Shown here: piece by piece, positions 5,540 to 63,240 of the stretch
How the letters are laid out: each line of letters opens with the position of its first letter
Position numbering within the stretch: position 1 is the first letter of the stretch
Source of the DNA: Corynebacterium suranareeae
GTDB lineage: Bacteria > Actinomycetota > Actinomycetes > Mycobacteriales > Mycobacteriaceae
Reading direction: 5' to 3'
NCBI RefSeq assembly: GCF_002355155.1
Contig: NZ_AP017369.1
Span: 1,178,001-1,242,000 of the forward strand
DNA: 64,000 bases
Notes under the pieces: model-generated
Database searches by the model: none
Seen by the model: only the letters and a program-made list of their open reading frames with translations
What the model was told of the DNA's origin: nothing
Position numbers and translations under genes: made by a program

Positions 5540-5551
5540 GCTTTTCGACGC
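5540..5551 (+). repeat. 12-mer repeat GCTTTTCGACGC (copy downstream of eno)
   Basis: Exact copy of a motif found ten times in the window on both strands. Here it merges into the eno terminator stem, sharing CGACGC with its left arm. Confidence 0.7.
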
Positions 5552-5588
5552 CCGGTAGCCGCAAGGTTGCCGGGCGTCGCTGTCTTAT
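5546..5588 (+). terminator. Hairpin downstream of eno
   Basis: CGACGCCCGGTAGCC at 5546-5560 pairs with GGTTGCCGGGCGTCG at 5565-5579 around a GCAA loop, with one mismatch in the middle. The tail CTGTCTTATT is only weakly T-rich, so it may terminate partially and set the ratio of eno to downstream mRNA. Confidence 0.7.
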
Positions 5589-5620
5589 TACTGTTACTGG
5601 TGTGACTATGATCGAGGATT

Positions 5621-6163
5621 ATGGCAAAGCAGAAGAAAACTCATAAAGGCATCGTTCCTGTCTCTAGCAGGGAACGCGCTTCAGAGTCAGTTTCTGCCAC
5701 CCGAGCACCATTTAGATTGGGTGCAGTAGGAATCGGTGCAATAGCACTTGTGGTGCTTTTAATCTTGTTTGTTATCGCAATTCCGGTGCGCAACTACTTT
5801 CAACTGCGCTCTGATATTGCTCAAACGGAAGCGTCAATTGCCGCTAAAGAACAGCAAATTAAGCAATTAGAATCAGACCTCAATAGGTACCAATCAGAGG
5901 CGTATATCAGGGAACAAGCCCGGCTTCGTCTTGGAGTTATTGAACCTGGTGAAACCGCCTTTAGAATCGTCGATCCAGCACTCGATTCAGATACCTCTGT
6001 GACTTCTGACGGTAATGAAGTAGAACCACTAGGCCCTTGGTATGAAAATCTGTGGGATTCTGTCACCACACCAGAAGTGCTCGGCGGAGAAGAAATTGCT
6101 CCTCCACCAATTGAAGGTGAAGTGCCAACTATTGCGCCAACAGAAGAAGCACCTGTGCAATAG
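5621..6163 (+). CDS. FtsB/DivIC-family septum formation initiator
   Basis: Bitopic divisome protein of 180 residues. A basic cytoplasmic N-terminus (about 1-32) is followed by one membrane helix (about 33-55, ALVVLLILFVIAIP) and then an extracellular coiled coil (about 60-95, QTEASIAAKEQQIKQLESDL), the layout of FtsB/DivIC proteins that bind FtsL and FtsQ. The C-terminal third is acidic and proline-rich (VLGGEEIAPPPIEGE). The same position after eno is seen in M. tuberculosis (Rv1024). The assignment rests on architecture and synteny. Confidence 0.85.
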   Translation: MAKQKKTHKGIVPVSSRERASESVSATRAPFRLGAVGIGAIALVVLLILFVIAIPVRNYFQLRSDIAQTEASIAAKEQQIKQLESDLNRYQSEAYIREQARLRLGVIEPGETAFRIVDPALDSDTSVTSDGNEVEPLGPWYENLWDSVTTPEVLGGEEIAPPPIEGEVPTIAPTEEAPVQ

Positions 6164-6198
6164 CGCTTTAGGCACAGACTCATGACAGAATAGAGAGC

Positions 6199-6753
6199 AT
6201 GAGTGTTAACGATGCAGATTTGAAAGCTGTCGAAGAGCAATTAGGACGGACACCACGAGGCGTCCTCGATATCTCTTACCGCAGCCCTGATGGAGTACCC
6301 GGTGTGGTGATGACCGCACCAAAACTCGATGATGGCACCCCATTTCCAACACTGTATTACTTAACTGACCCACGCCTGACCACTGAAGCATCCCGCCTCG
6401 AGGTGGCCTTGGTGATGAAATGGATGACCGAGCGTCTATCCACTGACGAAGAACTTCGCGCTGACTACCAGCGTGCCCACGAGCACTTCCTGGCTAAGCG
6501 CAACGCCATTGAAGATCTCGGCACTGATTTCTCCGGCGGTGGCATGCCTGACCGCGTGAAGTGCCTTCACGTTCTCATTGCTTACGCACTGGCAGAAGGC
6601 CCAGATCATTTCCGACTTGGAACTGAAGCCGTAGCGATGGCCGCTGAACACGGAGATCTTCGTGGAACCGCCATCCCAGAAGACTGGCCAACAGTCCAAG
6701 ACCTGGGCATTAATATGGAGGACTTTGATTTCTCCCGAGCAGGTGGGGCTTAA
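6199..6753 (+). CDS. DUF501 family protein
   Basis: A 184-residue cytoplasmic protein of the actinobacterial DUF501 family, function unknown. Typical stretches are LGRTPRGVLDISYR near the N-terminus and CLHVLIAYALAEGP around 117-130. It is the orthologue by position of Rv1025. Its stop overlaps the start of ppx (TAATG at 6751-6755), so the two are translationally coupled. The constant pairing with an exopolyphosphatase suggests, but does not prove, a role near phosphate or (p)ppGpp metabolism. Confidence 0.85.
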   Translation: MSVNDADLKAVEEQLGRTPRGVLDISYRSPDGVPGVVMTAPKLDDGTPFPTLYYLTDPRLTTEASRLEVALVMKWMTERLSTDEELRADYQRAHEHFLAKRNAIEDLGTDFSGGGMPDRVKCLHVLIAYALAEGPDHFRLGTEAVAMAAEHGDLRGTAIPEDWPTVQDLGINMEDFDFSRAGGA

Positions 6754-7718
6754 TGACCCGCTACGCGGCCATCGATTGCGGAACAAACTCCATCCGTCTG
6801 CTGATCACTGAAGTTACCCCTGACGGTTTCAAGGAGATCACCCGGGAAAACACCATCGTGCGTTTAGGCAAAGGCGTAGACGCCACCGGGCAACTCGACC
6901 CAGAAGCCATCGAACGCACCCGCATCGCGTTGGAAAACTACGTTGAGCTCATGGAAACGCACGGCGTAGAAACAGTACGCATGGTGGCAACCTCAGCTAC
7001 TCGTGATGCATCCAATCGTGATGAGTTCTTCTCCATGACCCGTCAGTTGCTGTCAAGGATCCGTCCTGGATACCAAGCAGAAGTAATCTCTGGTGAAGAA
7101 GAAGCTCTGCTGTCCTTCCGAGGCGCAATCGTTGACCTTCCTGAAGAACAAGGCCCATTCTGTGTGATTGACCTTGGCGGTGGATCAACTGAATTTATCG
7201 TCGGCACCTATGACGGTGACATCCTTGGATCCCACTCCACCCAAATGGGATGCGTTCGCCTCACCGAGCGAATTATGCGCAGCGATCCTCCCACTGAAAC
7301 GGAGGTGGAAATCGCCCGCGACTACGTTGCCGAACGCATCGAAGAAGTAAAAACCATCGTCCCAATTTCAAAGGCAAAAACCTTTGTTGGATGCGCAGGT
7401 ACTTTCACCACCATTTCCGCGTGGGTACAAGGCTTGGAAACCTACGACCGCAATGCGATCCACCTGTCAGCCCTCAACTTCGATGCTCTGCGAGTCGTGA
7501 CCGATGAGATCATCTCAGAATCATCATCGCAGCGGGCAAGCAACCCAGTTGTTGATCCAGGCCGTGCCGACGTTATCGGTGGGGGATCAGTGGTAGTTCA
7601 AGCAGCAATCGAACTCGCTTCGCAAGAAACAGGTGTGGACTACATTATTATCTCCGAGAAAGACATCCTTGATGGTTTGATTCTTGGCCTGGTAGAAGCT
7701 GATTCTGCACAGAAATAG
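6753..7718 (+). CDS. ppx: Exopolyphosphatase / pppGpp phosphohydrolase (Ppx/GppA family)
   Basis: ASKHA-fold phosphatase of 321 residues releasing phosphate from the ends of polyphosphate. Phosphate-1 motif DCGTNSIRLLI is at residues 8-18, the catalytic Glu lies in SGEEEALLSFRG around 113-124, and the glycine-rich DLGGGSTEF motif around 138-146. It lacks the C-terminal HD-like half found in long Ppx proteins, as is usual in actinobacterial short forms. Translation is coupled to the DUF501 gene. C. glutamicum has two such enzymes; this corresponds to the copy beside eno. Confidence 0.9.
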   Translation: MTRYAAIDCGTNSIRLLITEVTPDGFKEITRENTIVRLGKGVDATGQLDPEAIERTRIALENYVELMETHGVETVRMVATSATRDASNRDEFFSMTRQLLSRIRPGYQAEVISGEEEALLSFRGAIVDLPEEQGPFCVIDLGGGSTEFIVGTYDGDILGSHSTQMGCVRLTERIMRSDPPTETEVEIARDYVAERIEEVKTIVPISKAKTFVGCAGTFTTISAWVQGLETYDRNAIHLSALNFDALRVVTDEIISESSSQRASNPVVDPGRADVIGGGSVVVQAAIELASQETGVDYIIISEKDILDGLILGLVEADSAQK

Positions 7719-7817
7719 GACCCCGGTTTTATATCTCTAAGACATCATGTTCTATGATGTTTAAGCACCAAGAAAATAGCATTGGAAGCATACTTATGTA
7801 TCCTTACAGTGCTGCTT

Positions 7818-7894
7818 GCCCCCATAGCCCAATCGGCAGAGGCGGTTGACTTAAAATCAATACAGTGTGGGTTCGAGTCCCACTGGGGGCACCA
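7818..7894 (+). tRNA. tRNA-Leu (anticodon UAA)
   Basis: All arms can be drawn. Acceptor GCCCCCA 7818-7824 pairs with TGGGGGC 7884-7890. The anticodon stem 7845-7849/7857-7861 encloses loop CTTAAAA with anticodon TAA at 7852-7854. The T arm is GTGGG-TTCGAGT-CCCAC at 7867-7883, and the encoded 3' end is ACCA. The variable region is only five bases (7862-7866), unlike the long variable arm of usual leucine tRNAs; the isotype is assigned from the anticodon. Confidence 0.93.
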
Positions 7895-7896
7895 AT

Positions 7897-7944
7897 GTTC
7901 CAACAGTTCTGATCGTCACAGATCAGGAGTGTTGGAACTTTTTT
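7897..7944 (+). terminator. Rho-independent terminator after tRNA-Leu
   Basis: GTTCCAACA (7897-7905) pairs with TGTTGGAAC (7930-7938) and an inner CTGATC pairs with GATCAG, followed by six T. The remaining gap to the next gene (7945-8168) shows no further convincing signal. Confidence 0.88.
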
Positions 7945-8576: not shown

Positions 8577-8604
8577 CGCAACGGAGTTCGGTAGGGTCAC
8601 CATA

Positions 8605-9545: not shown

Positions 9546-9579
9546 AGTGATCAATATTGCCGGAACTGATAAATGCCCT

Positions 9580-12223: not shown

Positions 12224-12235
12224 GCGTCGAAAAGC
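12224..12235 (-). repeat. 12-mer repeat GCTTTTCGACGC (copy before ripA)
   Basis: Exact reverse-strand copy in the gap between the MmyB-type regulator and ripA, about 80 bases upstream of the DtxR box. Confidence 0.7.
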
Positions 12236-12366: not shown

Positions 12367-13362
12367 ATGAGTTCTGCCAGCTTGTTGTGGTGCCATTCCG
12401 GTGTGTCAACAGTTCGTTTTGGCGAGAGAATTTTTACTCTCGTCGCGGGTGATCTGCTATTCGCGCCAGAGGAAGTTCAGGTTACTGACGATTCTCAAGG
12501 GCTTGTTTTAGATATCCGCTTTGATGTGTTGAACATCGTTGGGCCTGCGCGTCGCATTCATCTTGGCCATATTTGGAATGATCGCCTGACTTTTGAGTAC
12601 AGCCGTTCACTTTTGGGCAAGGGGACACTGTCGCCCGACATTGCGAAACTGTTTACCGATCGAGTACCAACGCCTCCGCTACCTGCTCCTCGTAAGGCGC
12701 GCGCGGTTGCGCAGATTTTGGTATCAAACCCGGCAGATCAAACAAGCCTTGAAGAGTTTGCAGAAATGCAGGGAGTATCAGCGCGTACTTTGCAGCGCCA
12801 ATTCTTAAAGTCCACCGGATACTCCTTCAGTGAATGGCGTGCCGCGCAACGCGTGTGCGTTGCAGCGAGCCTGCTGGCTCATGATTTCAGCATTTCAGTG
12901 GTTGCGAGCCTTGTCGGGTTCGCCGCGACCAGTAGCTTGACCAGAGCTTTTCGACGCCACACCGGCTCCACTCCGTCCACTTTTTCTTCTGGGCAAATCG
13001 GTATGGGCGCAGCTGGCCAACCTCCTCGTATTCCTGCAACAACCACTTTTGCAGAAGCACATCAGGACCAGCAGCTGTGGATTTACAGCGGTACCGCAAC
13101 GGTGACTACCCCCGGTTACTGCCGCTTTATGGGGCAGGGCGATATGGTGACCATCCCAGCTGGAACCCAGACACGTATTGATGTTGCCGCTGGTTCCATT
13201 GCATTCCCAGTACCCGTTGGTCTTGATGAGTGGGGAATGGACCTTGCTCGCGTTGTAGCTGTTAATAACCAACAGCAAAAAGCTCTTACCGCGTTGGAAC
13301 AGTCTGAATGGTCGCAGCTTAGTGAGGAACTACTAAACACCCCGATCCCAGTGAAAATGTAA
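12367..13362 (+). CDS. ripA: RipA, AraC-type repressor of iron proteins
   Basis: A 331-residue AraC/XylS-family regulator that in C. glutamicum represses iron-containing enzymes such as aconitase under iron limitation. The N-terminal half is a cupin-like domain. Two helix-turn-helix motifs follow at about 125-220: [20 protein letters not shown] and [20 protein letters not shown] with [11 protein letters not shown]. The frame is open further upstream, but ATG 12367 gives exactly the length I remember for RipA and lies just after the DtxR box, whereas an upstream start would place the box inside the gene. Confidence 0.92.
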
Positions 13363-18956: not shown

Positions 18957-19727
18957 GTGTTAAACCTGCCCAGACTGCTGTACCCGGTTTATGAGCGCCG
19001 TCTTTTAAGAGAATTAGACGGCGCCAAACAGCCCGGTCACGTTGCCATTATGTGTGATGGCAACAGACGCTGGGCCCGGGAAGCTGGCTTTACCGATGTC
19101 AGCCATGGTCACCGCGTTGGTGCCAAAAAGATTGGCGAAATGGTTCGCTGGTGTGACGATGTTGATGTCAACCTCGTTACTGTTTATTTGCTGTCCATGG
19201 AAAATTTGGGGCGTTCTTCTGAAGAACTGCAACTACTTTTCGATATCATCGCTGATGTTGCTGATGAACTAGCACGCCCAGAAACCAACTGTCGTGTACG
19301 CCTCGTTGGGCACCTTGACCTACTTCCAGACGCAGTGGCGTGCCGAATGCGGAAAGCAGAAGAAGCTACCGTCAACCACACGGGAATCGCCGTAAACATG
19401 GCTGTTGGTTATGGCGGACGTCAAGAAATCGTCGATGCGGTTCAAAAACTTCTGGCGGTAGGTAAAGATAACGGTTTAAGCCCTGATGATCTTATCGAAT
19501 CTGTCACAGTCGAAGCGATCTCCACTCACTTGTACACCTCTGGCCAACCTGACCCTGACCTGGTGATCCGTACTTCCGGTGAACAGCGTCTTTCCGGATT
19601 CATGCTGTGGCAGTCGGCATATTCCGAAATTTGGTTCACAGACACCTACTGGCCAGCTTTCCGACGCATCGACTTCCTCCGCGCGCTTCGTGATTACTCC
19701 CAGCGCAGCAGAAGATTTGGCAAATAG
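18957..19727 (+). CDS. Short-chain cis-prenyl diphosphate synthase (Rv1086-like)
   Basis: UppS-family prenyltransferase of 256 residues. The catalytic motif HVAIMCDGNRRWA is at about 28-40, with Asp34 as key residue; SMENLGRSSEE and the C-terminal PDLVIRTSGEQRLSGFMLWQ, YSEIWF motifs are present. By position and sequence it resembles Rv1086, which makes Z,E-farnesyl diphosphate used for decaprenyl phosphate synthesis, rather than the long-chain enzyme Rv2361c. A NLGR stretch replaces the NWxRP of standard UppS. Start is GTG 18957. Confidence 0.87.
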   Translation: MLNLPRLLYPVYERRLLRELDGAKQPGHVAIMCDGNRRWAREAGFTDVSHGHRVGAKKIGEMVRWCDDVDVNLVTVYLLSMENLGRSSEELQLLFDIIADVADELARPETNCRVRLVGHLDLLPDAVACRMRKAEEATVNHTGIAVNMAVGYGGRQEIVDAVQKLLAVGKDNGLSPDDLIESVTVEAISTHLYTSGQPDPDLVIRTSGEQRLSGFMLWQSAYSEIWFTDTYWPAFRRIDFLRALRDYSQRSRRFGK

Positions 19728-20777: not shown

Positions 20778-21749
20778 CTAGATCTTGCGCATCCTAACTC
20801 GCTCCACCAGGTGATCACTACCTTTTTTCAAAACTAGTGATGCTCGAACCCGGGTGGGAAGGATATTTTCCACGAGGTTCGGCAGGTTGATTGATTGCCA
20901 TAATTCACGAGCTACTGCAGTGGATTGTTCGTCAGACATATCGGCGTAGTGGGAGAAGTGGGCTCCGGGGCGTCGGAAAGCGGTATGACGCAGTTGGAGG
21001 AAGCGGTCGATGTACCACTTTTCAATATCTTCGGTGCGGGCATCTACGTAGACGCTGAAATCGAAAAGGTCGCTAACCATCAACGTTGGTCCGGTTTGGA
21101 GCACGTTTAAGCCTTCGACGATCAAGATGTCGGGTTGGCGGACGGTAATAAATTCACCGGGTACGCGGTCATAGGCGGTGTGGGAATACACGGGTGCGTT
21201 GACTTCGCGTTTGCCTGATTTTACGTCGGTGACAAATCGAAGCAGTGCTCGTTGATCGTAGCTTTCGGGGAAGCCTTTCCTGGACATCAAACCGCGACGC
21301 GTTAGCTCAGCGCCGGGGTAGAGGAATCCATCGGTGGTAACAAGATCTACCCGAGGGTGTGTATTCCAACGCTGTAAAAGTACTTGCAGTAGGCGAGCGG
21401 TGGTGGATTTACCAACGGCGACGGAGCCGGCTACGCCGATGACAAAGGGCACAGAGGTGGACGGTGAGGTGCCAAGGAAGGTTTCGGTGGCCGCTGTAAG
21501 TTGTTGACGTGCTGCAACTTGGAGGTGAATCAGACGTGAAAGCGGAAGGTAGACTTCTGCGACTTCTTCCAGGTCAATGTTTTCGCCGATTCCTCGCAGC
21601 TCAATGACTTCTTTTTGGGTGAGCACCTGAGGCATTGAGTTTCTACGCTCACGCCATTGCACACGATCGAAATCAAGATAGGGGCTGAAATCTGATGTGC
21701 GCGGGGAATTTTTCACACCATTTGTCCTTGCAGCATTTTGCTCTGCCAT
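20778..21749 (-). CDS. coaA: Pantothenate kinase, type I
   Basis: First step of coenzyme A synthesis, phosphorylating pantothenate. A 323-residue P-loop kinase with Walker [13 protein letters not shown] near 104-115, the TDGFLYP substrate loop, [10 protein letters not shown], and [11 protein letters not shown] near 220. It is the bacterial CoaA type that is feedback-inhibited by CoA. The start at ATG 21749 ([10 protein letters not shown]) matches my memory of the C. glutamicum protein; a GTG five codons upstream is possible. It is divergent from glyA, as coaA/glyA are in M. tuberculosis (Rv1092c/Rv1093). Confidence 0.95.
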
Positions 21750-23371: not shown

Positions 23372-25234
23372 ATGCGCGTTTTAATAATCGATAATTACGA
23401 TTCTTTCACGTTTAATCTCGCCACTTATGTGGAAGAAGTAACAGATCAGGCACCCACGGTGGTGCCTAATGATCAGCAGATCGATGAGACGCTTTTCGAC
23501 GCCGTCATCCTCTCACCAGGCCCGGGTAGCGCCGGAGTTCCGGCTGATTTTGGTATCTGTGCTGATGTGATCGATCGGGCACGCGTCCCGATTTTGGGTG
23601 TGTGTTTGGGGCATCAAGGTATTGCGTTGGCCCATGGTGGTGATGTCGAATTAGCGCCACGGCCAGTTCATGGTGAAGTATCGCAAATCACTCATGATGG
23701 TTCTGCTCTGTTTGCAGGAATCCCTGAGACTTTTCAGGCTGTGCGTTATCACTCAATGGTGGCAACGCGCCTGCCGGAGGTGTTGAAAACTACAGCAACC
23801 AGCGAAGATGGTTTGATCATGGCTTTGGCACATGAGACCTTGCCACAGTGGGGTGTGCAATTTCATCCAGAGTCGATCGGTGGGCAGTTCGGTCATCAGA
23901 TCATTAAGAATTTCCTTAATTTAGCGCGTCAATACAGGTGGCAGATCACCGAAAAAACAATTCCGCTAAGTGTCGATCCAGCAGCAGTATTTGAAACGTT
24001 TTTTGCTGATTCCTCACATGCTTTTTGGCTCGATGATGCCCAAGGAACCAGTTATCTTGGTGATGCCTCCGGCCCATTAGCACGTATTAAAACCCACAAC
24101 GTCGGCGACGGTGATTTCTTTAATTGGTTGAAGGAAGATTTGGCAGCCAATTCGGTCGCACCAGGTCAAGGTTTTCGTCTTGGTTGGGTGGGATACCTCG
24201 GTTATGAGCTGAAAGCCGAAGCTGGCGCAAGGCCTACGCACACATCGAATCTTCCAGATGCTCACCTAATTTTTGCTGATCGTGCCATTGCGGTGGAACC
24301 ACATCAGGTGCGTTTGATGGCGTTGGGGGAGCAGGATGCGTGGATCGCGGAAACCAGTGAAAAGCTCCACAATTTATCTGCCCCAAGACCACCTGCATCC
24401 GGTCACCTCAATCTGCACGTACGCATTTCTAAAGATGAGTATCTGGCCAAAATACACAAGGCCCAGGATCTGATTACCCGTGGTGAATCTTATGAAATCT
24501 GCCTTACAACAAAGCTTCACGGCATCACTGACACAGATCCTCTTGCTGCGTATTTAGCACTGCGTGCAGCTAATCCCACAGCGTATGGTGCATATCTCCA
24601 GCTTGGCGATACATCCATTTTAAGCTCTTCACCAGAGCGTTTCATCACCATTGATTCAGCAGGTCACGTGGAATCAAAGCCGATTAAGGGCACCAGACCC
24701 CGTGGACAGTCCGTGGAAGAAGACCAAGCAATTATCGCCGAGCTGCGCAGTAATCCTAAAGATCGTGCAGAAAACCTAATGATTGTGGATTTAGTCCGCA
24801 ATGATTTAGCACGCGGCGCCTTGCCCACGACGGTAAAAACTTCAAAGCTTTTCGACATAGAAACCTTCGCCACCGTACACCAACTCGTTAGCACCGTTTC
24901 TGCAAAGCTTGGACCACGCAACCCGATTGAGTGTGTCCGCGCAGCATTCCCTGGTGGCTCAATGACCGGTGCGCCGAAGCTGCGCACAATGGAGATCATT
25001 GATGAATTGGAGGAAGCACCCCGCGGTATCTACTCCGGTGGTTTGGGCTATTTTTCCCTTGACGGTGCAGTTGATCTTTCCATGGTGATCAGAACTTTAG
25101 TTATCCAAAATAACCACGTGGACTACGGTGTGGGCGGCGCGATTCTTGCTCTTTCTGATCCCGAAGCCGAGTGGGAGGAAATCCGGGTCAAATCACGGCC
25201 GTTGCTTAACTTATTTGGGGTGGAGTTTCCGTGA
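23372..25234 (+). CDS. pabAB: Aminodeoxychorismate synthase, fused PabA-PabB
   Basis: Makes 4-amino-4-deoxychorismate for folate synthesis. Residues about 1-195 are the glutamine amidotransferase (MRVLIIDNYDSFTFNL start, GVCLGHQ with the nucleophile Cys near 78, QFHPES near 168); residues about 205-620 are the chorismate-binding part. The PIKGTRPRG motif near 434 has the lysine typical of PabB rather than the alanine of TrpE, supporting ADC synthase. Total 620 residues with the start at 23372, preceded by AGAGGA. Its stop overlaps the pabC start by four bases. Confidence 0.94.
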   Translation: MRVLIIDNYDSFTFNLATYVEEVTDQAPTVVPNDQQIDETLFDAVILSPGPGSAGVPADFGICADVIDRARVPILGVCLGHQGIALAHGGDVELAPRPVHGEVSQITHDGSALFAGIPETFQAVRYHSMVATRLPEVLKTTATSEDGLIMALAHETLPQWGVQFHPESIGGQFGHQIIKNFLNLARQYRWQITEKTIPLSVDPAAVFETFFADSSHAFWLDDAQGTSYLGDASGPLARIKTHNVGDGDFFNWLKEDLAANSVAPGQGFRLGWVGYLGYELKAEAGARPTHTSNLPDAHLIFADRAIAVEPHQVRLMALGEQDAWIAETSEKLHNLSAPRPPASGHLNLHVRISKDEYLAKIHKAQDLITRGESYEICLTTKLHGITDTDPLAAYLALRAANPTAYGAYLQLGDTSILSSSPERFITIDSAGHVESKPIKGTRPRGQSVEEDQAIIAELRSNPKDRAENLMIVDLVRNDLARGALPTTVKTSKLFDIETFATVHQLVSTVSAKLGPRNPIECVRAAFPGGSMTGAPKLRTMEIIDELEEAPRGIYSGGLGYFSLDGAVDLSMVIRTLVIQNNHVDYGVGGAILALSDPEAEWEEIRVKSRPLLNLFGVEFP

Positions 25235-29201: not shown

Positions 29202-29949
29202 GGGACACCTGCACCTTATGTGCTGCAAGAGTAGTCACGATCTTTTCTACCAACACTAGAGCCTGCGGGTTGTCGCCATGCACACAGATGGAGTTGGCGT
29301 CGACAAGCACGCTTTCCCCGGTGATCGCGGTGATGGGGGCGCCTGTTGCAAACGCCAATGCCTGCTTGGCGGCGATTTCGGGGTCGTGGTGCACCGCGCC
29401 GGGAAGCTTGCGGGAAACCAGTTGGCCGTCGGCGGTATAAGCGCGGTCGGCGAATGTTTCTTGCTCAACAACTAGCCCGGCAGCGCGCGCCTGATCGACG
29501 ATCTGTGAACCAGCAAGCGCCATGAGCGTTAGGGTTGGGTCAACAAGCTTGATGCCCTCAATGACCGCAGCTGCCTGGGCCTCATTAACGGCAATGGTGT
29601 TGTAGAGCGCGCCGTGGGGTTTAACGTATTCCACCGTTGCACCACTGGCGGTTGCTGCCGCCTTGATTGCCCCAATTTGGTAAATGGTTTCCGCAACGAG
29701 GTCGTCGTGGGCGTAATCAATATTGCGACGACCGAAACTAGCGATGTCGTTGTAGCCGATGTGTGCGCCGATGCGTACATTTCGTGCATGTGCGGCCCGG
29801 ACGGTTTTTAGCAGCACTGATGCATCACCGGCATGGAAGCCACAGGCAATATTTGCGCTGGACACCAAATCGAGCACGGCTTCATCGTTGCCCATGGTCC
29901 AGTTGCCGTAGCTTTCGCCGAGGTCGCTGTTGAGATCAATGGTGATCAT
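29191..29949 (-). CDS. pxpA: 5-oxoprolinase subunit PxpA (LamB/YcsF family)
   Basis: A 252-residue subunit of 5-oxoprolinase. The diagnostic N-terminus IDLNSDLGESYGNW is at residues 3-16, followed by SANIACGFHAGDASVL near 32-47, RIGAHIGYND and YVKPHGALYN near 110. Start ATG 29949 with AAAGGTGAAG upstream; the longer open frame overlaps the transporter gene and is not used. It lies between the NRAMP-type transporter and pxpB, all in one direction. Confidence 0.94.
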   Translation of the reverse strand: MITIDLNSDLGESYGNWTMGNDEAVLDLVSSANIACGFHAGDASVLLKTVRAAHARNVRIGAHIGYNDIASFGRRNIDYAHDDLVAETIYQIGAIKAAATASGATVEYVKPHGALYNTIAVNEAQAAAVIEGIKLVDPTLTLMALAGSQIVDQARAAGLVVEQETFADRAYTADGQLVSRKLPGAVHHDPEIAAKQALAFATGAPITAITGESVLVDANSICVHGDNPQALVLVEKIVTTLAAHKVQVSHAR

Positions 29950-32259: not shown

Positions 32260-33504
32260 ATGGCATTTGGATTTTTTGGTCGAAGGAAAAAGAAGAACCA
32301 AGAAGAAAACCCTAACGGCAACTCAGCAGTGCCCGCACATCCTGAAAATTCCTCTGAAGAGGCATTTGAAGGAAATGGTCGTCAGACAGGCGATCCAATT
32401 GAACAGCGGGTGGAACGGGACGCCAAAGGGCGACTGACTGCTGCAGATTTTTTGCCGGATGCGGATCTGCCACAACTTAATCGTTCGCGTGCAAATATGC
32501 TGCGCCGTGAGCTGGAGTATCGTTTTTCGCTACAAAATGCCCATATCAATATCGACGGCACCACGGCTGTCATCCAACGCGCTGATGGCGGGGCAGCCCA
32601 TGTGTCGTTGAGTACTTTGGCCATGAATGCAGCTGGTTTGGATGATTTTGATCAGCTTCCTGATCTGGTGGAAAGCTTCGTGCACGGAACTCTTGCTGAT
32701 GCCACATTGAATGATTTTTCCACCGCAGATTTGTATAAGTCTCTGCGGCTTCGTCTGCTGCCCACTCCCAGTGAAGGCGACGATCTGGTTGAGCACGGAT
32801 TGGGCAAGGAAAGCCAGATCCGCGATGAATCCGTGCTGCGAACCTTCACCTCAGATATGTCGATCGCGCTGGTGCTCGATACCGAGCATGCCATTCGCAT
32901 CCAGCCACTCAAAGAGCTCGAGGAGTTCGATGAGCTCAGCGCCCTAGAGCGGGCTGCGGACCGCAATACTTGGCAAGAGCTTATCGACGCCACCGTCGAC
33001 GCTTCCTTCGTTGACGCCGAATCAGACAATGAAGGGTCATCATTTTGGGCGTTTGAATCAAACTCCTACTATCTAGGCAGCGCACCACTTTTCTTAGGCG
33101 ATCTGCTTGCTAAGTGGGCTCCAGAATTAGATCAAAGTGATGGTGTCATCTTCGCAGTTCCAGACCGTGACCTACTGATCGCTCGTCCTGTGACCACCGG
33201 TGAAGACTTGATGAACGGTATTACGGCGATGGTGAGGATCGCGATGCGCTTTGGCCTCGGGAACCCGACGTCGATAAGCCCGCGCCTGCACCTGTTACGC
33301 GAAAACCAGGTGACTACGTTTACCGACTACCGCGTTATCTCTCCTGAAATGGAAGCCGAGTGGGAGGAGAGTGCTTTTGAAGCGCCCCCTGCCGGTGCCA
33401 TCGGGATTGAGGTCCGTCCCGATCCGTATTTGATGGAACGGCTGCAGCAAGGCGGCTTTGGAGATTTCGGAGATTTCGGCAAACCCCGCGATCTAGATAT
33501 GTAG
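32260..33504 (+). CDS. Conserved hypothetical protein, 414 residues
   Basis: Cytoplasmic protein with a basic N-terminus (MAFGFFGRRKKKNQEEN), a low-complexity acidic linker to about residue 60, and a globular alpha/beta remainder. It ends with Gly/Phe/Asp repeats (GGFGDFGDFGKPRDLDM). It has no signal peptide or membrane helix. I do not recognise a named domain with confidence; a DUF1444-like fold is possible. AAGGAGG eight bases before ATG 32260 sets the start. It is followed by a strong hairpin before the convergent fum. Confidence 0.78.
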   Translation: MAFGFFGRRKKKNQEENPNGNSAVPAHPENSSEEAFEGNGRQTGDPIEQRVERDAKGRLTAADFLPDADLPQLNRSRANMLRRELEYRFSLQNAHINIDGTTAVIQRADGGAAHVSLSTLAMNAAGLDDFDQLPDLVESFVHGTLADATLNDFSTADLYKSLRLRLLPTPSEGDDLVEHGLGKESQIRDESVLRTFTSDMSIALVLDTEHAIRIQPLKELEEFDELSALERAADRNTWQELIDATVDASFVDAESDNEGSSFWAFESNSYYLGSAPLFLGDLLAKWAPELDQSDGVIFAVPDRDLLIARPVTTGEDLMNGITAMVRIAMRFGLGNPTSISPRLHLLRENQVTTFTDYRVISPEMEAEWEESAFEAPPAGAIGIEVRPDPYLMERLQQGGFGDFGDFGKPRDLDM

Positions 33505-40108: not shown

Positions 40109-41304
40109 GCCAAGAAATTTTGAACCATTTTGCGCCCGCATTAAAACGCATTCGAAGCGGTGCAGTCGAGCGCGAACAGCAGCGAACCCTACCAGTAGAA
40201 GAGATTAAAGAGCTGGTAGAGCTAGGTTTCACTGGACTGCGGGTACCCGAAGAACTAGGCGGAGCGGGCGCTTCTTTGGAAAGCGTGGTTGAGTTACTCA
40301 TCGAGATCGCGACCGCTGATTCCAATATCGCCCAAGCTTTGCGCGGGCACTTTGCCTTCGTGGAGCTACTCCTGGAAGCCCCAGACAGTGAATTCCGCAC
40401 CCACTGGTTGCGCGAAGTCGCTACCGGAAAATTGGTGGGCAATGCTGAAAGTGAAAAACGTGGCGTCTACGGCGATCCGCAGACTTTCATCGATGAGGTG
40501 GATACTGAAAACGGTCCGATTTTCGTGCTCAACGGCACCAAGTTCTACACCACCGGCACCTATTTTGCGGACTACACCTGGACCACCGCGCTGCTGCGCA
40601 ACCTCAATGGCCAAGAAACTTTGGTCAGTTTGCCGGTTAATCTGCGCGCGCCGGGTGTGGATGTTGTTGATGACTGGAATGGGTTTGGGCAAAAGCTCAC
40701 CGCGTCTGGAACGACCACGTTTAAGGACGTGGAGGTGGATCCGCGATGGATCATTCCACGCACCGATACGCCCACGCTGGTGTGGACGTACCTGCAGCTC
40801 AACCTGCTCACCGTACTGGTCGGCAGCGCCGCAGCAGCTGTCGATGAAGTAGTAGTCCGCGCCCAATCCTCCACCAGAAATGCGTGGAATCCTGGCGTCG
40901 AACGCCGCAGCGATCCGGCCGCAACCTTAGCGATCGGCGACGCACGCAGCCGGGTCACCGTTATTCGCGGAGCGCTTCTCGACGCCACCCGCCACGTTTC
41001 CAACGCCGCCACGATCGCAACCCCCGACGCCTTCAACGAGGCGGATGCTATTGTTGCAGCACTCTGGCCCATCGTCTCCGAACAAGCTTTAGTGGTGACA
41101 TCTAACGTATTCGATGCGGTGGGTGCATCTGCAGTGCTTGGTGAGCATTCCATTGATCGACACTGGCGCAATGTACGCACCGTGTCTTCAAACAACCCGG
41201 TGTTTCTAGCCAAGAATGCAGTGGGGGAGTATGCCCTTAACGGCACTCCTGTGGGCACCAACATCGGTAAAGCACTGAGCCGACCTGTCAGCCTAAGTAG
41301 TTAA
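40105..41304 (+). CDS. seuC: SeuC, acyl-CoA-dehydrogenase-fold flavin monooxygenase, SeuB paralogue
   Basis: A 399-residue paralogue of SeuB with matching landmarks: RVPEELGGAGASLESVVELL, IATADSNIAQALRGHFAF, FVLNGTKFYTTGTYFADY and SIDRHWRNVRTVSSNNP. The ATG at 40105 overlaps the SeuB stop; the much longer open frame upstream is inside seuB and is rejected. Two paralogues in one operon suggest a hetero-oligomer or consecutive oxidations. An inverted repeat after the stop (41308-41356) ends the operon. Confidence 0.92.
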   Translation: MSQEILNHFAPALKRIRSGAVEREQQRTLPVEEIKELVELGFTGLRVPEELGGAGASLESVVELLIEIATADSNIAQALRGHFAFVELLLEAPDSEFRTHWLREVATGKLVGNAESEKRGVYGDPQTFIDEVDTENGPIFVLNGTKFYTTGTYFADYTWTTALLRNLNGQETLVSLPVNLRAPGVDVVDDWNGFGQKLTASGTTTFKDVEVDPRWIIPRTDTPTLVWTYLQLNLLTVLVGSAAAAVDEVVVRAQSSTRNAWNPGVERRSDPAATLAIGDARSRVTVIRGALLDATRHVSNAATIATPDAFNEADAIVAALWPIVSEQALVVTSNVFDAVGASAVLGEHSIDRHWRNVRTVSSNNPVFLAKNAVGEYALNGTPVGTNIGKALSRPVSLSS

Positions 41305-46882: not shown

Positions 46883-46894
46883 GCGTCGAAAAGC
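46883..46894 (-). repeat. 12-mer repeat GCTTTTCGACGC (between VWA gene and xseB)
   Basis: Exact reverse-strand copy. Its CGACGCCC continues into a small hairpin with GGCGTC (46868-46889), downstream of xseB on the minus strand, where it could serve as a terminator. Confidence 0.7.
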
Positions 46895-49541: not shown

Positions 49542-50364
49542 AGCTATAAAGGTCATCGTCTAAGGATCCGCGGCGTCTTGGCGCTTGTCGACGCTCACCT
49601 GCATCCGTACGCGCCGGCGCCTCAGGGGCGCTCGGGCGAGGTGCTGGTTTTGGTGGTTCTACGACGGGGCCAGGAGTGGGAGTAAACGGAACACCTCGCT
49701 CTGATTGGCGCTTAGCGATCTGCTGACGACGCTCCTGACTACGACGAATCAACTCGTCCACAGTCACCTGCGAACCCGTATCACCTGTGCTTGGTTGTGC
49801 ACGTCGGCTCCGCACCTTAGTAGTTTGTGCACGAGCACGGCGGGCTGCATTTTGATTAGCTTCTTCCGCCTCACGCTGAGCGCGCCGGGTTTTTTCACCA
49901 GAAACCTGTCGAGATTCTTGGTTTCTGCGCAACAATATAATCCTCACCACGGCAATCAGTGCCGCCACCAGCGTGACCATTAATAATGTTGGGAAGAGCT
50001 GCGCTAACGGATATACAGCAGTCAAGATTTCGGTTGCTGAAACGCCCGGAGAAGAACTAGAAGCAACACCTTGTTGGGAAACAAACCACGATGTCAGTGG
50101 CGTAAAAATACCAAACAAGATCGGGATTGAAGCAACAGTAAGAAATAAGCCTCGGGCCTCAACCAACAAAGTCACACCGAGAGTCGCGATGATGAAAATC
50201 AACTGGTAGGGCAGACCAACTACGCCCAGAAGTAAGCTAACAAGCAATCCTGTAATGAGGGATGCCAAAACTACTGAAGGGCCCGACCACGTTGGCAAAC
50301 CTACAAAAGCAGTCTGCTGAGATGACCTGGAACTTCTCTTCGACGACGCTGATCCATGAGACAC
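49540..50364 (-). CDS. Membrane protein with DUF6542-like N-terminus (Rv1111c position)
   Basis: A 274-residue protein with about four membrane helices within residues 25-145 (VVLASLITGLLVSLLLGVVG, LIFIIATLGVTLLV, FLTVASIPILFGIF, LLMVTLVAALIAVVRIILL). The cytoplasmic tail is long, Arg/Gln-rich and later proline-rich (PTPGPVVEPPKPAPRP, then RRQAPRRRGSLDDDLYS). Between ispH and ychF, it corresponds to Rv1111c. The tail looks disordered and could be a scaffold; function unknown. Confidence 0.8.
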   Translation of the reverse strand: MSHGSASSKRSSRSSQQTAFVGLPTWSGPSVVLASLITGLLVSLLLGVVGLPYQLIFIIATLGVTLLVEARGLFLTVASIPILFGIFTPLTSWFVSQQGVASSSSPGVSATEILTAVYPLAQLFPTLLMVTLVAALIAVVRIILLRRNQESRQVSGEKTRRAQREAEEANQNAARRARAQTTKVRSRRAQPSTGDTGSQVTVDELIRRSQERRQQIAKRQSERGVPFTPTPGPVVEPPKPAPRPSAPEAPARTDAGERRQAPRRRGSLDDDLYS

Positions 50365-52178: not shown

Positions 52179-53870
52179 TTAGGACTCCTTAGCTTCAGGG
52201 TTGGTCACTGCGACAGTAGGGTAGCGCGATGCATCCTCGCTGGCATCGAAAGGGATGAAGGGGTCATTAGAAGCCCACCGCCGTGGGCGGTGCAGTCGGC
52301 GCTTGAATTCCGGCAGGACGCCGAAGTCTGAACCGGGTGGGCCGTCGACAAGCGTGCCCTTTGGCCATGCAACCAGCGGCATTAGGAATGCGACCACCAA
52401 GATGACTGCCAAAACACCCCAGCCGAAGAGGCCGTTTTGTAGCAAGGTGTATCCGCCGTATGGCTCGTTGATCAGGGAGATGAGTTCCAAGACAAGGGTG
52501 GACCCTAGAACCAAAGTAGTGATGTTGACTACCGAAATGCGCCAAATGGTGTTGACTTTGAAAGCAGAGATTGCGTTGAGGTGGGTGGAGAATTCATCAA
52601 TGCGGCGCAGCACCCAGTCGATTGTCACCACAGCAATCAACGCGATGGCGACGATACCGATGTTGTTGGTGAACTTGTCCATGATGTCCAGCGTTGCAAG
52701 GCCGGACGTGGTGGAGAACAAAACGAGAGAAATCAATGCCATGACAACACCCACGCCGATCGCGGTGGCTTTGCGCTGCAGGCCAAATTTATCTTTGACT
52801 GCCGATACGACCACTTCCAGTAGCGAGAACAGCGAGGTAAAACCAGCGATGGTCAAAGAGCTAAAGAAAAGGAAACCGAACAGCCCGCCAAGAGGCATTT
52901 CATTGATAATCGTTGGGAAAGCGACGAAGGCAAGGCCAATTCCTGAGGTTGCGACCTCATCAACACCAACTCCGGCATTAGCAGCCATGAAGCCGAGTGC
53001 TGCGAACACGCCGATACCTGCAAGAACCTCGAAAGAAGAGTTGGCAAAACCAGTGACCAAACCGGTGCTGGTCAAGTTGGTACGAGGCTTTAGGTAAGAG
53101 GAGTAGGTCAGCATGATGCCGAATCCCACCGACAGTGAGAAGAAGATCTGGCCATATGCAGCAATCCACACAGTTGGGTTCTTCAGAGCTTCCCAGTTCG
53201 GAGTAAACAGCGCATCCAAACCAACTTCAGCACCAGGCAACAAAATTGCCTGCACAACCACGATGATGAAGATAATCACCAACAGTGGCATAAACACCAT
53301 GTTGACTCGCCCGATGCCTTTATCCACGCCAATAGCAAGGACAGCAACAGCTGCAACCCACACGATAAACAGTGCAATGGCGATCTGCGGAACAATGTCG
53401 AGGGAAACTACTGCTTCAGAATCGAAGTTCAAAAAGTCAGAGAAGAAATAAGTATCCGGATCAGATCCCCACGCCTTATTTAAAGACTTGAAGGCATAAA
53501 GACCAGCCCAACCAATGATGGCCGCGTAATAGATAGTGATGAAGAACGCGATACCAACCTGGATCCAACCAATGGATTCGGTTTGTTTCTTGAAGCGTCG
53601 AAAAGCTAGGGGAGCGGAACCCCTGTACCGGTGGCCAAGCGCGAAGTCGAGGAACAACAGCGGAATACCTGCAGTAAGCAAGGCAACAGCGTAAGGGATA
53701 AGGAATGCGCCGCCGCCGTTGTCGTATGCGACATAAGGAAAGCGCCAAATATTACCTAGGCCCACCGCAGAACCGATAGCAGCAAGAATAAATATAGAAC
53801 GGGAAGAAAATACTTCGCGGCGTTCGCCTTTTTGAGGGGGCGTGGAAGCCGTGTCTTGTGGAGTTGACAT
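52179..53870 (-). CDS. metP: MetP, sodium-dependent methionine/alanine importer (NSS family)
   Basis: A 563-residue neurotransmitter:sodium-symporter-family transporter with about twelve helices. Helix 1 has the NSS signature AAIGSAVGLGNIWRFPYVAY near 31-50, followed by NGGGAFLIPY. ATG 53870 has GGAG eight bases upstream and is preferred to ATG 53888 and the longer frame. Forms an operon with metS. The gap to ychF (53871-54181, 311 bases) holds the divergent promoters but no McbR-type site or riboswitch that I can see. Confidence 0.92.
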   Translation of the reverse strand: MSTPQDTASTPPQKGERREVFSSRSIFILAAIGSAVGLGNIWRFPYVAYDNGGGAFLIPYAVALLTAGIPLLFLDFALGHRYRGSAPLAFRRFKKQTESIGWIQVGIAFFITIYYAAIIGWAGLYAFKSLNKAWGSDPDTYFFSDFLNFDSEAVVSLDIVPQIAIALFIVWVAAVAVLAIGVDKGIGRVNMVFMPLLVIIFIIVVVQAILLPGAEVGLDALFTPNWEALKNPTVWIAAYGQIFFSLSVGFGIMLTYSSYLKPRTNLTSTGLVTGFANSSFEVLAGIGVFAALGFMAANAGVGVDEVATSGIGLAFVAFPTIINEMPLGGLFGFLFFSSLTIAGFTSLFSLLEVVVSAVKDKFGLQRKATAIGVGVVMALISLVLFSTTSGLATLDIMDKFTNNIGIVAIALIAVVTIDWVLRRIDEFSTHLNAISAFKVNTIWRISVVNITTLVLGSTLVLELISLINEPYGGYTLLQNGLFGWGVLAVILVVAFLMPLVAWPKGTLVDGPPGSDFGVLPEFKRRLHRPRRWASNDPFIPFDASEDASRYPTVAVTNPEAKES

Positions 53871-60191: not shown

Positions 60192-60281
60192 CTTGGTAGC
60201 CAATTGCTAAAAATCCCCTGGTAAGAAGTAAATGGATAGACTGGGCACACGTATCAAATTGCAAGGCAATGGAGGCTTGTG

Positions 60282-61100: not shown

Positions 61101-61159
61101 GCGTCGCAGTACCAAGTGCGATAAAAACTTTAGTGAATCTTATTTAAAGGAGTCTGGCT

Positions 61160-61600: not shown

Positions 61601-61610
61601 ACGGGGAAGT

Positions 61611-62018
61611 TTAGGGCAGCACGTAGTCACCCGTGGGACCGGGGTTCATGGCAATTTCCCACCGAAAACCGTCAGGATCGGAGAAATATCCGGAATATCC
61701 GCCCCATTCGCGGTGAACGGCTGGAGAGACATCAGCACCGATTGACGCAGCAAGTACTAGAACACCATCGACTTCTTTCTCGGTGGCGCAGTTATGCGCG
61801 AGGGTAATCGGTGCGATTCCACGAGCCGGAGGACGGCCAATTTCGGCGGTAAATCCTTCGATGCTCCAAAGCGAAAGCATGAGGTGTTCGCCAGCTGGAA
61901 GCATGATGACCTCATCATTTTCGAACATTGGTTTCCACCCAAGCCCATCGACGTAGAATTCCCTGCTTCGTGCAACATCCTCAACGGCAAGGGTGATAAA
62001 ACTAATGCGTTGTTCCAT
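61611..62018 (-). CDS. VOC-superfamily (glyoxalase/bleomycin-resistance fold) protein
   Basis: A 135-residue protein with MEQRISFITLAVEDVARSREFYVDGLGW at the start, the paired beta-alpha-beta units of the VOC fold, and FSDPDGFRWEIAMNP near 110-125 where the metal-ligand Glu lies. Could be a dioxygenase, isomerase or binding protein. It is divergent from the NUDIX gene; the shared promoter region contains a 24-base palindrome of the 12-mer repeat. Confidence 0.85.
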   Translation of the reverse strand: MEQRISFITLAVEDVARSREFYVDGLGWKPMFENDEVIMLPAGEHLMLSLWSIEGFTAEIGRPPARGIAPITLAHNCATEKEVDGVLVLAASIGADVSPAVHREWGGYSGYFSDPDGFRWEIAMNPGPTGDYVLP

Positions 62019-62047
62019 ATTTTTACTTTAAGGCAGCCTGAAGGGAA

Positions 62048-62071
62048 GCGTCGAAAAGCGCTTTTCGACGC
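62048..62071. repeat. Perfect 24-base palindrome made of two 12-mer repeats
   Basis: GCGTCGAAAAGC (62048-62059) directly followed by its reverse complement GCTTTTCGACGC (62060-62071). It lies between the divergent VOC and NUDIX genes, so it is not a terminator for either. Confidence 0.8.
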
Positions 62072-62166
62072 CCAACCCCGCCATCTTCGCTCAGCGCCCA
62101 GCACGCTCGGGCGGCAGACAGGTTAGTCTCGGCGCAGCAATGTGCTCTCGACTTAAAATGATTCAC

Positions 62167-62622
62167 ATGGATCGAACATTGCGCGGACCTGAGCGCCGGG
62201 TTGTTGAAAAAGCACTCGGCTATGTCATACAAAACCACCAACTGCTAGTGTTCACGCATGATGACACCCCAATTACGGTTACAGGCGTTCAGGTTCCAGG
62301 AGGAACAATAGAGCCAACTGAATCACCTGAAGATGCTGTTGTCCGTGAAGTTTTTGAAGAAACTGGTGTCGCGGTTCGAATCGTAAACTCTTTGGGCACT
62401 GCGTTTTATGATGCTTGGCCGACAAAACCTGAACTTCATAAACGGCACTTCTTTCAATTGGCACCACTGCAACAGGTAGAGATGGACTCTTGGAGTGCAG
62501 GCGAAATGGATTGCTCAGATGGAGGCGCTCCGCAACGTTGGACTTGCTATTGGATGCCGATTGAGCACGCACATGTATTATGCGCAGGAATGGGTGCGAA
62601 ACTGGGAGAACTCGAGCTTTAA
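62167..62622 (+). CDS. NUDIX hydrolase
   Basis: A 151-residue hydrolase of nucleoside-diphosphate-linked compounds. The complete NUDIX box is present: GTIEPTESPEDAVV followed by REVFEETGV (pattern Gx5Ex7REUxEExGU) near 46-68. ATG 62167 is a guess; 62140 and 62158 are in-frame alternatives without better ribosome binding sites. The substrate cannot be deduced. Downstream (62623-62821) there is one copy of the 12-mer repeat at 62701 and no other gene. Confidence 0.85.
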   Translation: MDRTLRGPERRVVEKALGYVIQNHQLLVFTHDDTPITVTGVQVPGGTIEPTESPEDAVVREVFEETGVAVRIVNSLGTAFYDAWPTKPELHKRHFFQLAPLQQVEMDSWSAGEMDCSDGGAPQRWTCYWMPIEHAHVLCAGMGAKLGELEL

Positions 62623-62700
62623 ACTAGAGACCCCATGCAGAAATAGTGACAAAGAATCACTAGGTAGCCTGTACTCGTTTAGTGAAAGGTGAGGAGGGAG

Positions 62701-62712
62701 GCGTCGAAAAGC
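62701..62712 (-). repeat. 12-mer repeat GCTTTTCGACGC (downstream of NUDIX gene)
   Basis: Exact reverse-strand copy in the gap between the NUDIX gene and the SMI1/KNR4 gene. Confidence 0.7.
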
Positions 62713-62821
62713 AATTAATTACCGCATGCCCAAGCCTGCCGACTAAGCCATACCCCTGCGAGGCAAGCTTTTCTTTTACGAGATGGAGGCTAGTTTGTAT
62801 TGCGTGACTGGCAAAGTGGAT

Positions 62822-63190
62822 TTACGCATCCTCGAGCTCAGTTTTGATGAAGGGTTCGTCTTCGTGCGACCAAATGTAGAAGGCATCATCATCGGGAAGC
62901 AGAATTATTAAGTCGCCCGTTCCGTCATTTGCAATTGCGATCGCATTTTCGGGGAAATTGTCCCATTCACGTGCAGGTTCGGTCTCGCGGATGATGTCGT
63001 TGGCGGTTCGGACAAGCCTTTTTCGATCGCTGTCATCACGAACTGGATGGAGAATCCAGTCGTTGTTTTCATTGTCGATGACTTCGCCACCATTGTTTTG
63101 AAGTAGTCGTTCGCGCAAAGTGTCGGGGAGACGCCTGCCAAAGGTTTCCTCAGCTGCCAGGATTTTGTCTTCTGTCACGGGGAAAGCCAT
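62822..63190 (-). CDS. SMI1/KNR4 family protein
   Basis: A 122-residue acidic protein of the SMI1/KNR4 (SUKH) fold: VTEDKILAAEETFGRRLPDTLRERLLQNNGG at the N-terminus and NAIAIANDGTGDLIILLPDD near 82-101. Many SUKH proteins are immunity proteins to contact-dependent or polymorphic toxins, but no toxin gene is visible beside it, so it may be an orphan or have another role. Divergent from the 2H phosphoesterase gene. Confidence 0.85.
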   Translation of the reverse strand: MAFPVTEDKILAAEETFGRRLPDTLRERLLQNNGGEVIDNENNDWILHPVRDDSDRKRLVRTANDIIRETEPAREWDNFPENAIAIANDGTGDLIILLPDDDAFYIWSHEDEPFIKTELEDA

Positions 63191-63228
63191 GCCATCATAA
63201 TACGCGCCAAAAGCGTTAAAAGATGTTT

Positions 63229-63240
63229 GCTTTTCGACGC
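63229..63240 (+). repeat. 12-mer repeat GCTTTTCGACGC (between divergent genes)
   Basis: Exact copy in the promoter region between the SMI1/KNR4 gene and the 2H phosphoesterase gene. Confidence 0.7.

What the first reader, a model, noticed from the sequence alone, without database searches (positions are those of the whole stretch)
5540..63240. Over-represented 12-mer GCTTTTCGACGC on both strands, partly as palindromes and hairpins
Exact copies by reading: 5540, 12946, 23491, 62060, 63229 on the plus strand; 12224, 46883, 53595, 62048, 62701 on the minus strand. Random expectation in 64 kb on both strands is below 0.01. Eight of ten extend to GCTTTTCGACGCC. Seven are intergenic (a small fraction of the window) and three lie in genes (ripA, pabAB, metP), two of those encoding Ala-Phe-Arg-Arg. 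Two copies run into hairpin stems (5540, 46883) and one pair forms a 24-base palindrome between divergent genes. The pattern resembles DNA uptake signals, or a site for a nucleoid, repair or chromosome-organising protein; it matches no regulator I know.
Basis: partly seen in the sequence, partly recalled or inferred. Interest (0 to 1): 0.72.

Follow-up and report, generated by a model that had tools for sequence, protein, structure and literature searches.

The report
Genus-wide DNA uptake-signal candidate in Corynebacterium
A short DNA word found ten times in this window is scattered hundreds to thousands of times through most Corynebacterium genomes, in lineage-specific spellings, much like the tags that some bacteria use to recognise and take up DNA of their own kind, which would be new for Gram-positive bacteria.

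Summary
The 12-mer has 254 copies in the 3.54 Mb genome (reversed control 1). Its skeleton, GCTTNNCGAYG, has 1369 (control 63). Of 242 Corynebacterium genomes, 169 carry it at 6.5 times the control or more (median 1165 copies), 19 are intermediate and 54 low; 113 genomes of 30 other genera of the family are near background. Copies lie on both strands without replichore bias. In genes they exceed a synonymous-codon control about tenfold, so the DNA itself is favoured. Flanks are unrelated apart from a T-rich 5' and C-rich 3' shoulder. Two phages have background counts. There are dialects: 17 genomes hold 136-578 copies of GCTTNNCGATGCC and 0-5 of the window's 12-mer. Best explanation: a DNA uptake sequence read by a Flp/Tad-pilus and ComEA/ComEC transformation machine, whose genes occur across the genus. 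Uptake, reader and natural transformation remain unshown, and motif-poor genomes keep the same machine, so its genes do not explain where the motif occurs. Chi/KOPS, parS/Noc, transposon, terminator-only and regulon readings fit worse.

The parts
5540..5551 (+). exact copy, 8 nt after the eno stop codon; its 3' half forms the 5' arm of a strong hairpin before the ftsB-like gene
12224..12235 (-). exact copy, intergenic
12946..12957 (+). exact copy inside the AraC-type regulator gene (ripA-like), Ala-Phe-Arg-Arg
23491..23502 (+). exact copy inside the pabAB fusion gene, Leu-Phe-Asp-Ala
46883..46894 (-). exact copy, intergenic, 3' half in a hairpin stem
53595..53606 (-). exact copy inside the sodium:neurotransmitter-symporter-family gene (metP-like), Ala-Phe-Arg-Arg
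62048..62059 (-). exact copy, left half of a 24-base palindrome
62060..62071 (+). exact copy, right half of the 24-base palindrome between divergent genes
62701..62712 (-). exact copy, intergenic
63229..63240 (+). exact copy, intergenic
1594..1605 (-). skeleton match GCTTTTCGACGT
1635..1646 (+). skeleton match GCTTATCGACGC
19656..19667 (+). skeleton match GCTTTCCGACGC
20970..20981 (-). skeleton match GCTTTCCGACGC
29297..29308 (-). skeleton match GCTTGTCGACGC
32979..32990 (+). skeleton match GCTTATCGACGC
40974..40985 (+). skeleton match GCTTCTCGACGC
49583..49594 (+). skeleton match GCTTGTCGACGC (27 skeleton matches in the window in all; 18 are listed here)

Best explanation
The motif is a DNA uptake sequence: a self-recognition tag on chromosomal DNA. 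A surface reader, most likely a minor pilin or pilus-tip protein of the Flp/Tad pilus, binds double-stranded DNA carrying GCTTNNCGAYGCC with its T-rich 5' and C-rich 3' shoulders. The pilus (TadA/TadB/TadC, DUF4244 pilin, TadE, TadF) brings the DNA through the envelope, ComEA holds it, ComEC passes one strand inside, and homologous recombination fixes it. Fragments that carry the tag are taken up more often, so tags accumulate wherever genes tolerate them. Shown here: abundance, extent in the genus, dialects, DNA-level enrichment, lack of polarity, presence of the machine's genes.
For: 254 exact copies against 1 in the reversed control; skeleton 1369 against 63. 169 of 242 genus genomes at 6.5 times the control or more, 19 intermediate, 54 low; 113 genomes of 30 other genera median 1.1, maximum 2.7 times. 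Strand-neutral: 100,897 of 201,896 forward in the 169; 125 of 254 along the leading strand (dnaA at contig base 1). Coding copies 147 against 14.4 +/- 4.3 in synonymous shuffles, five of six frames up. Dialects: 17 genomes with 136-578 GCTTNNCGATGCC and 0-5 of the C 12-mer, also codon-corrected (G107: CGAT 50 vs 5.5, CGAC 0 vs 2.8; G000: CGAC 111 vs 4.2, CGAT 8 vs 6.1); the 8 T-dialect genomes sampled lie in one part of the eno tree. Two phages (BFK20, CL31): 4 copies in 88 kb against about 2 expected. ComEC 241 of 242, DUF4244 pilin 238 of 242, T2SSF 233 of 242, prepilin peptidase 239 of 242, whole Tad operon 30 of 30 loci, ComEA with ComEC 23 of 23 loci. Tad pili are needed for transformation in Micrococcus luteus and Liberibacter crescens (PMC8513845, PMC6370729 and PMC6668835, passages).
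Against: Motif-poor genomes keep the same machine: Tad operon in 18 of 18 and ComEA/ComEC in 11 of 11 checked, so machine genes do not predict the motif. An early association with T2SSF turned out to mark a clade with TadB and TadC fused in one ORF (12 of 18 motif-poor loci, 0 of 12 motif-carrying ones). No report of natural transformation or of an uptake sequence in Corynebacterium was seen (listings; the lists of 18, 25 and 26 were capped). No reader was identified; TadE/TadF alignments show no dialect signature by eye. G043 is motif-poor although it sits next to a T-dialect genome in the eno tree. Only 4 of 28 intergenic copies form hairpins (shuffle mean 0.6). Sixteen genomes hold 40-66 T-form and 11-32 C 12-mer copies, so the dialect split is not complete; the T pattern is looser than the C 12-mer, so the two counts are not on one scale.
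Confidence: 0.6

Rival explanations
1. Binding site of an unknown intracellular DNA-organising, repair or recombination protein of Corynebacterium that changed specificity between lineages. The sites are kept because the protein needs many anchors along the chromosome.
For: Sites are spread around the chromosome, genus-specific within the family, enriched at DNA level, at background in two phages. Dialects would follow any coevolving reader.
Against: No replichore polarity (125 of 254), unlike Chi or KOPS; the core is not palindromic and not clustered near origin or terminus, unlike parS, matS or Noc sites (recalled). About a thousand sites, 147 of 175 of them in genes in the 464 kb sample, is much for known organisers.
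Confidence: 0.25
2. Transcription terminator or RNA 3'-end element: the motif is one arm of stem-loops after genes.
For: The site 8 nt after eno forms a stem in G000, G065, G034 and G038, kept through a compensatory change in G038 (read from the sequences); 4 of 28 intergenic copies form a stem of 6 bp or more against 0.6 in shuffles; 24-base palindrome at 62048-62071.
Against: Most copies lie inside genes (147 of 175), in both orientations; 24 of 28 intergenic copies make no such stem. Terminator use looks secondary, as for Haemophilus uptake sequences (PMC5217627, PMC1590033, passages).
Confidence: 0.05
3. Operator of a transcription factor with a very large regulon.
For: Intergenic copies show a longer consensus (T-rich 5', CC.CCCTCC 3'); 17 of 36 exact copies in the sample are intergenic although 87% of it is coding.
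Against: Intergenic sites lie at both ends of genes in both orientations, most skeleton sites are in genes, and the number differs between species from background to about 2000.
Confidence: 0.05
4. Dispersed mobile repeat (MITE, REP or transposon remnant).
For: Dispersed and numerous.
Against: No conserved sequence beyond about 25 bp; mean pairwise flank identity of the motif words in G097 and G107 0.33-0.44, overlapping motif bases included; copies inside genes sit in open reading frames.
Confidence: 0.02

Closest known systems
DNA uptake sequences (DUS) of Neisseriaceae
   Same: Short non-palindromic word, hundreds to thousands of copies per genome, lineage dialects differing at one or two positions, relatives in the family without it (PMC3630211, abstract and section on dialects). 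Copies on both strands and in terminators are recalled.
   Different: Another sequence with no visible relation, an actinobacterial genus, lower density (about 390 skeleton copies per Mb here), Tad/Flp pilus instead of type IVa pilus, no ComP-like reader known; uptake not shown.
Uptake signal sequences (USS) of Pasteurellaceae
   Same: Core with degenerate shoulders, no orientation bias along the chromosome, one orientation commoner in reading frames (PMC2346458, passages); here 91 same-strand against 56 opposite copies in genes.
   Different: Different core and a C-rich rather than AT-rich 3' shoulder (USS shoulders recalled).
Tad/Flp-pilus-dependent transformation of Micrococcus luteus
   Same: Actinobacterium with ComEA/ComEC and a tad-type cluster needed for transformation (PMC6370729, passages).
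   Different: No uptake sequence was described in the passages seen; Corynebacterium transformation is not shown.
HIP1 of cyanobacteria
   Same: Abundant word of debated role in many related genomes (recalled).
   Different: HIP1 is palindromic (recalled); this core is not.

Membership tests
DNA uptake sequence (DUS/USS) | Over-represented word with hundreds to thousands of dispersed copies | tested here: met
   254 exact, 1369 skeleton copies against 1 and 63 in controls
DNA uptake sequence (DUS/USS) | Both strands, no replichore polarity | tested here: met
   125 of 254 along the leading strand; 100,897 of 201,896 forward in 169 genomes
DNA uptake sequence (DUS/USS) | Present in genes and between them, favoured at DNA level | tested here: met
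   0.36 per kb coding, 0.48 per kb intergenic; coding 147 against 14.4 in synonymous shuffles
DNA uptake sequence (DUS/USS) | Dialects that follow the phylogeny | tested here: met
   17 T genomes with 0-5 C 12-mers, 16 mixed genomes, codon-corrected in 5 carrying genomes of the C and T kind; third form GCTTNCCGACG, often with a following T, in 60 kb of G173; the tree is one gene, 31 genomes
DNA uptake sequence (DUS/USS) | Genome encodes a DNA uptake machine | tested here: met
   ComEA, ComEC, Tad operon, prepilin peptidase; but equally in motif-poor genomes
DNA uptake sequence (DUS/USS) | Some copies pair up as terminator stems | tested here: inconclusive
   3 opposite pairs within 100 bp among the 199 listed of 254 sites; 4 of 28 intergenic hairpins
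DNA uptake sequence (DUS/USS) | Tagged DNA is taken up or transforms better | not testable with these tools
   needs experiment
DNA uptake sequence (DUS/USS) | Specific receptor | not testable with these tools
   no candidate singled out; TadE/TadF alignment uninformative by eye
Chi / KOPS-type polar sites | Orientation follows the replichore | tested here: not met
   125 of 254
parS / matS / Noc-type sites | Palindromic site restricted to a chromosome region | tested here: not met
   core not palindromic; the 199 listed sites spread over the chromosome with a thin stretch at 1.8-2.3 Mb
MITE / REP / transposon remnant | Shared longer sequence around copies | tested here: not met
   flanks diverge beyond about 25 bp
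Intrinsic terminator | Copies lie after genes as stem-loops | tested here: not met
   147 of 175 in genes, 24 of 28 intergenic without such a stem

The most novel reading that the evidence does not exclude
Most Corynebacterium species carry a self-DNA code, to my knowledge the first in Gram-positive bacteria: about a thousand uptake tags per genome, read by a pilus-borne receptor of a Flp/Tad transformation machine. Dialects (CGAC, CGAT, NCCGACG) would act as barriers to gene exchange between lineages, and the genus, C. glutamicum included, would be naturally transformable under conditions not yet found. The unrelated word GATGACGYCGCG in G012 could be a second, independently evolved code.
Probability: 0.5. 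Interest if true: 0.93.

Novelty: new variant of a known kind. Interest (0 to 1): 0.86.

Why it matters
Uptake sequences are known to me only from Neisseriaceae and Pasteurellaceae (recalled; the review passages name only Neisseria for a pilin DNA receptor). A genus-wide system with dialects in Actinobacteria would imply hidden natural transformation in an industrial workhorse genus and help explain gene flow and its barriers there. It would also give the Tad/Flp pilus field a sequence-specific assay: tagged against untagged DNA. If it is not uptake, it is an abundant, unexplained, genus-specific site with a coevolving reader, with 1261 skeleton copies in the genome that I take to be C. glutamicum.

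Tried and rejected
Gene presence as the explanation: T2SSF hits were weak (E above 1e-7) or missing in 43 of 242 genomes, and 35 of those 43 had fewer than 3 C-dialect 12-mers against 31 of 199 others. This looked decisive but fell: in the motif-poor loci looked at, 12 of 18 have TadB and TadC fused in one ORF and 0 of 12 motif-carrying ones do, and the Tad operon is complete in all 30. Three of the weak- or no-hit genomes have the T dialect (G129, G157, and G028 at low level). The fuller split is 33 of 54 low, 1 of 19 intermediate and 9 of 169 high genomes with weak or no T2SSF hit, which I read as phylogeny.

Decay footprint: one-mismatch versions of the skeleton against the reversed string gave ratios of 0.87-2.27 in 12 motif-poor and 1.01-2.03 in 4 motif-carrying genomes. 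Inconclusive.

Reader by dialect: alignments of DUF4244, TadE and TadF from 30 loci, read by eye, showed no column that splits C from T genomes; only 3 T genomes were in them. Motif discovery in motif-poor genomes found no substitute of comparable strength in G007, G011, G029, G043, G072, G114, G121, G124, G132, G207 and G232 (55-97 kb sampled each). There were weaker words, for example GGACGCCACC in G072 (10 against 0.9) and CGACGCCCTCG in G232 (11 against 1.4), and a CRISPR-like array in G121. G012 has a strong unrelated word.

G065 is taken as C. glutamicum ATCC 13032 from its contig length, which is recalled.

Rfam at gathering scores gave only a tRNA in the window.
Full report
CHECK. In the whole genome (one contig of 3,537,507 bases, the window being bases 1178001-1242000) there are 121 forward and 133 reverse copies; the same letters read backwards give 1. 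In 464 kb (twenty 20-kb stretches plus the window) the 12-mer was counted 36 times against 0.3 expected from an order-5 Markov model.

WHAT THE MOTIF IS. The fifth base is free and the sixth mostly T in the window genome: GCTTNTCGACG. Intergenic copies (n=28) show a longer element, an A/T-rich 5' shoulder ending in T, the core, then CC.CCCTcC..C; coding copies (n=147) keep a weaker C-rich 3' shoulder. Beyond about 25 bp nothing is shared, so it is not a transposed unit.

GENES. Density of the skeleton is 0.36 per kb in called genes and 0.48 per kb between them. Genes hold 147 skeleton copies against 14.4 +/- 4.3 (20 shuffles, maximum 25) when synonymous codons are permuted; five of six frame and strand classes are enriched. 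Protein sequence and codon usage therefore do not explain it. Of the 36 exact 12-mers, 17 are intergenic in DNA that is 87% coding. Gene calls are from my own simple caller. Spacing of skeleton copies is close to random (154 spacings, CV 0.97).

STRAND AND PLACE. 125 of 254 exact copies point along the leading strand, taking dnaA at contig base 1 as origin and the opposite point as terminus. The listings give places for 199 of the 254: these thin out between 1.8 and 2.3 Mb, with a gap of 209 kb after 1,914,155. The one stretch held inside the gap (L042, 1.98-2.00 Mb) has 1 skeleton copy in 20 kb and encodes a D5-type helicase/primase-like protein, an SNF2 helicase and a LysM protein, so it looks like a prophage or island. 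Phages BFK20 and CL31 of C. glutamicum/Brevibacterium flavum carry 1 copy in 43 kb and 3 in 45 kb, against about 1 each expected from a first-order Markov model and about 380 per Mb in G065 (1261 copies).

GENUS. Exact 12-mer: 208 of 242 genus genomes have at least one, up to 368; other genera of the family have 0-12 (140 genomes). Skeleton GCTTNNCGAYG: ratio to the reversed control at least 6.5 in 169 genomes (242-2032 copies, median 1165), 3.2-6.5 in 19, below 3.2 in 54 (thresholds are mine). In 113 genomes of 30 other genera the median ratio is 1.1 and the largest 2.7. Within the family the element is a feature of the genus Corynebacterium.

DIALECTS. Sampling genomes without the 12-mer revealed GCTTGCCGATGCC in G097 and GCTTNNCGATGCC in G107. 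Genus-wide, 17 genomes carry 136-578 copies of GCTTNNCGATGCC and each has 0-5 of the C 12-mer. Codon-corrected counts agree: G107 50 CGAT (5.5 expected) and 0 CGAC (2.8); G097 13 (1.5) and 2 (0.8); G000 111 CGAC (4.2) and 8 CGAT (6.1); G065 39 (2.0) and 1 (1.0); G060 41 (1.9) and 1 (1.6). G173 uses GCTTNCCGACG, often followed by T. Sixteen genomes have 40-66 T-form and 11-32 C copies and may be mixed; G028 has 40 and 1. In an enolase tree of 31 genomes the eight T genomes group together with one motif-poor genome (G043) among them; several motif-poor genomes are basal and others are scattered. G157 is low by ratio yet has 136 T copies.

POSITIONS TURN OVER. After eno the motif sits 2-8 nt past the stop in G000, G065, G034, G038, G023 and G046, with the stem kept in G000, G065, G034 and G038, and at +31 in G036; in the other 24 of 31 genomes nothing lies within 60 nt. 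This one site is kept among close relatives and is absent beyond; other sites were not compared.

MACHINE. comEA (SLBB + helix-hairpin-helix), comEC and holA lie together in G000, and all three are found in 23 of 23 loci looked at, one of them (G124) with comEC in pieces. ComEC domain in 241 of 242 genomes, DUF4244 pilin 238, T2SSF 233, prepilin peptidase 239. The Tad operon ssd-tadA-tadB-tadC-DUF4244-tadE-tadF is complete in 30 of 30 loci, 12 from motif-carrying and 18 from motif-poor genomes, with TadB and TadC in one ORF in 12 of the 18.

READING. A dispersed, strand-neutral, codon-independent word with dialects, background counts in two phages and a pilus/ComEC machine in the genome is what uptake sequences look like. 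Eight dialects of the Neisseriaceae sequence are distributed in line with phylogeny, and members of the family without it exist (PMC3630211, abstract and section 6 read). In Pasteurellaceae and Neisseria no general orientation bias has been seen and one orientation is commoner in reading frames (PMC2346458, passages); here 91 copies are on the gene strand and 56 opposite. Tad pili serve transformation in Micrococcus luteus and Liberibacter crescens (PMC8513845, PMC6370729, PMC6668835, passages). I commit to an uptake sequence at 0.6; the main rival is a chromosome-binding protein of another kind at 0.25.

LITERATURE. A search for the letters of the motif listed 8 papers, none opened: two on single C. 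glutamicum proteins and six on other organisms; whole-word searches for shorter cores listed none. Searches pairing Corynebacterium with uptake-sequence, competence, comEC or comEA terms listed no paper on an uptake sequence in the genus (listings, three of them capped; plus passages of PMC5217627, PMC2267715, PMC1590033 and of PMC8002715 for an accession number). The library lacks most subscription journals.

Noticed in passing
G012 (L063-L066, L181): A genome without the skeleton has another strongly over-represented word, GATGACGYCGCG (21 in ORFs against 0.7 in synonymous shuffles), possibly an independent uptake code.
   Followed up: partly
L231-L242 (motif-poor genomes G018, G049, G066, G081, G121, G143, G216, G227, G230, G241, G007, G072): TadB and TadC are fused in one ORF, and TadE in several of these starts near MNTVEG without the usual leader stretch; a deep split of the Corynebacterium Tad pilus.
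   Followed up: partly
window genome, 464 kb sample: A second repeated word, GGGTCTCCTGGTTTGG, whose 12-mers were counted 15-17 times against about 0.1 expected; nature not examined.
   Followed up: no
G109 (L083-L086): TCCCCAGCTTA with 17 copies in 80 kb, 0.05 expected, beside the skeleton motif including GCTTTACGACG.
   Followed up: no
G232 (L071-L074): Palindrome ATGCACGTGCAT with a both-strand count of 8 (4 sites) in 80 kb against 0.0 expected.
   Followed up: no
G000 1,914,155-2,122,841: 209-kb stretch without a listed exact 12-mer; the part held (L042) looks like a prophage or island.
   Followed up: partly
G121 (L059-L062): A repeat unit counted about 75 times in 80 kb with a CRISPR-like sequence.
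   Followed up: no
window 7818-7891 (+): tRNA, the only Rfam match in the window at gathering scores.
   Followed up: no
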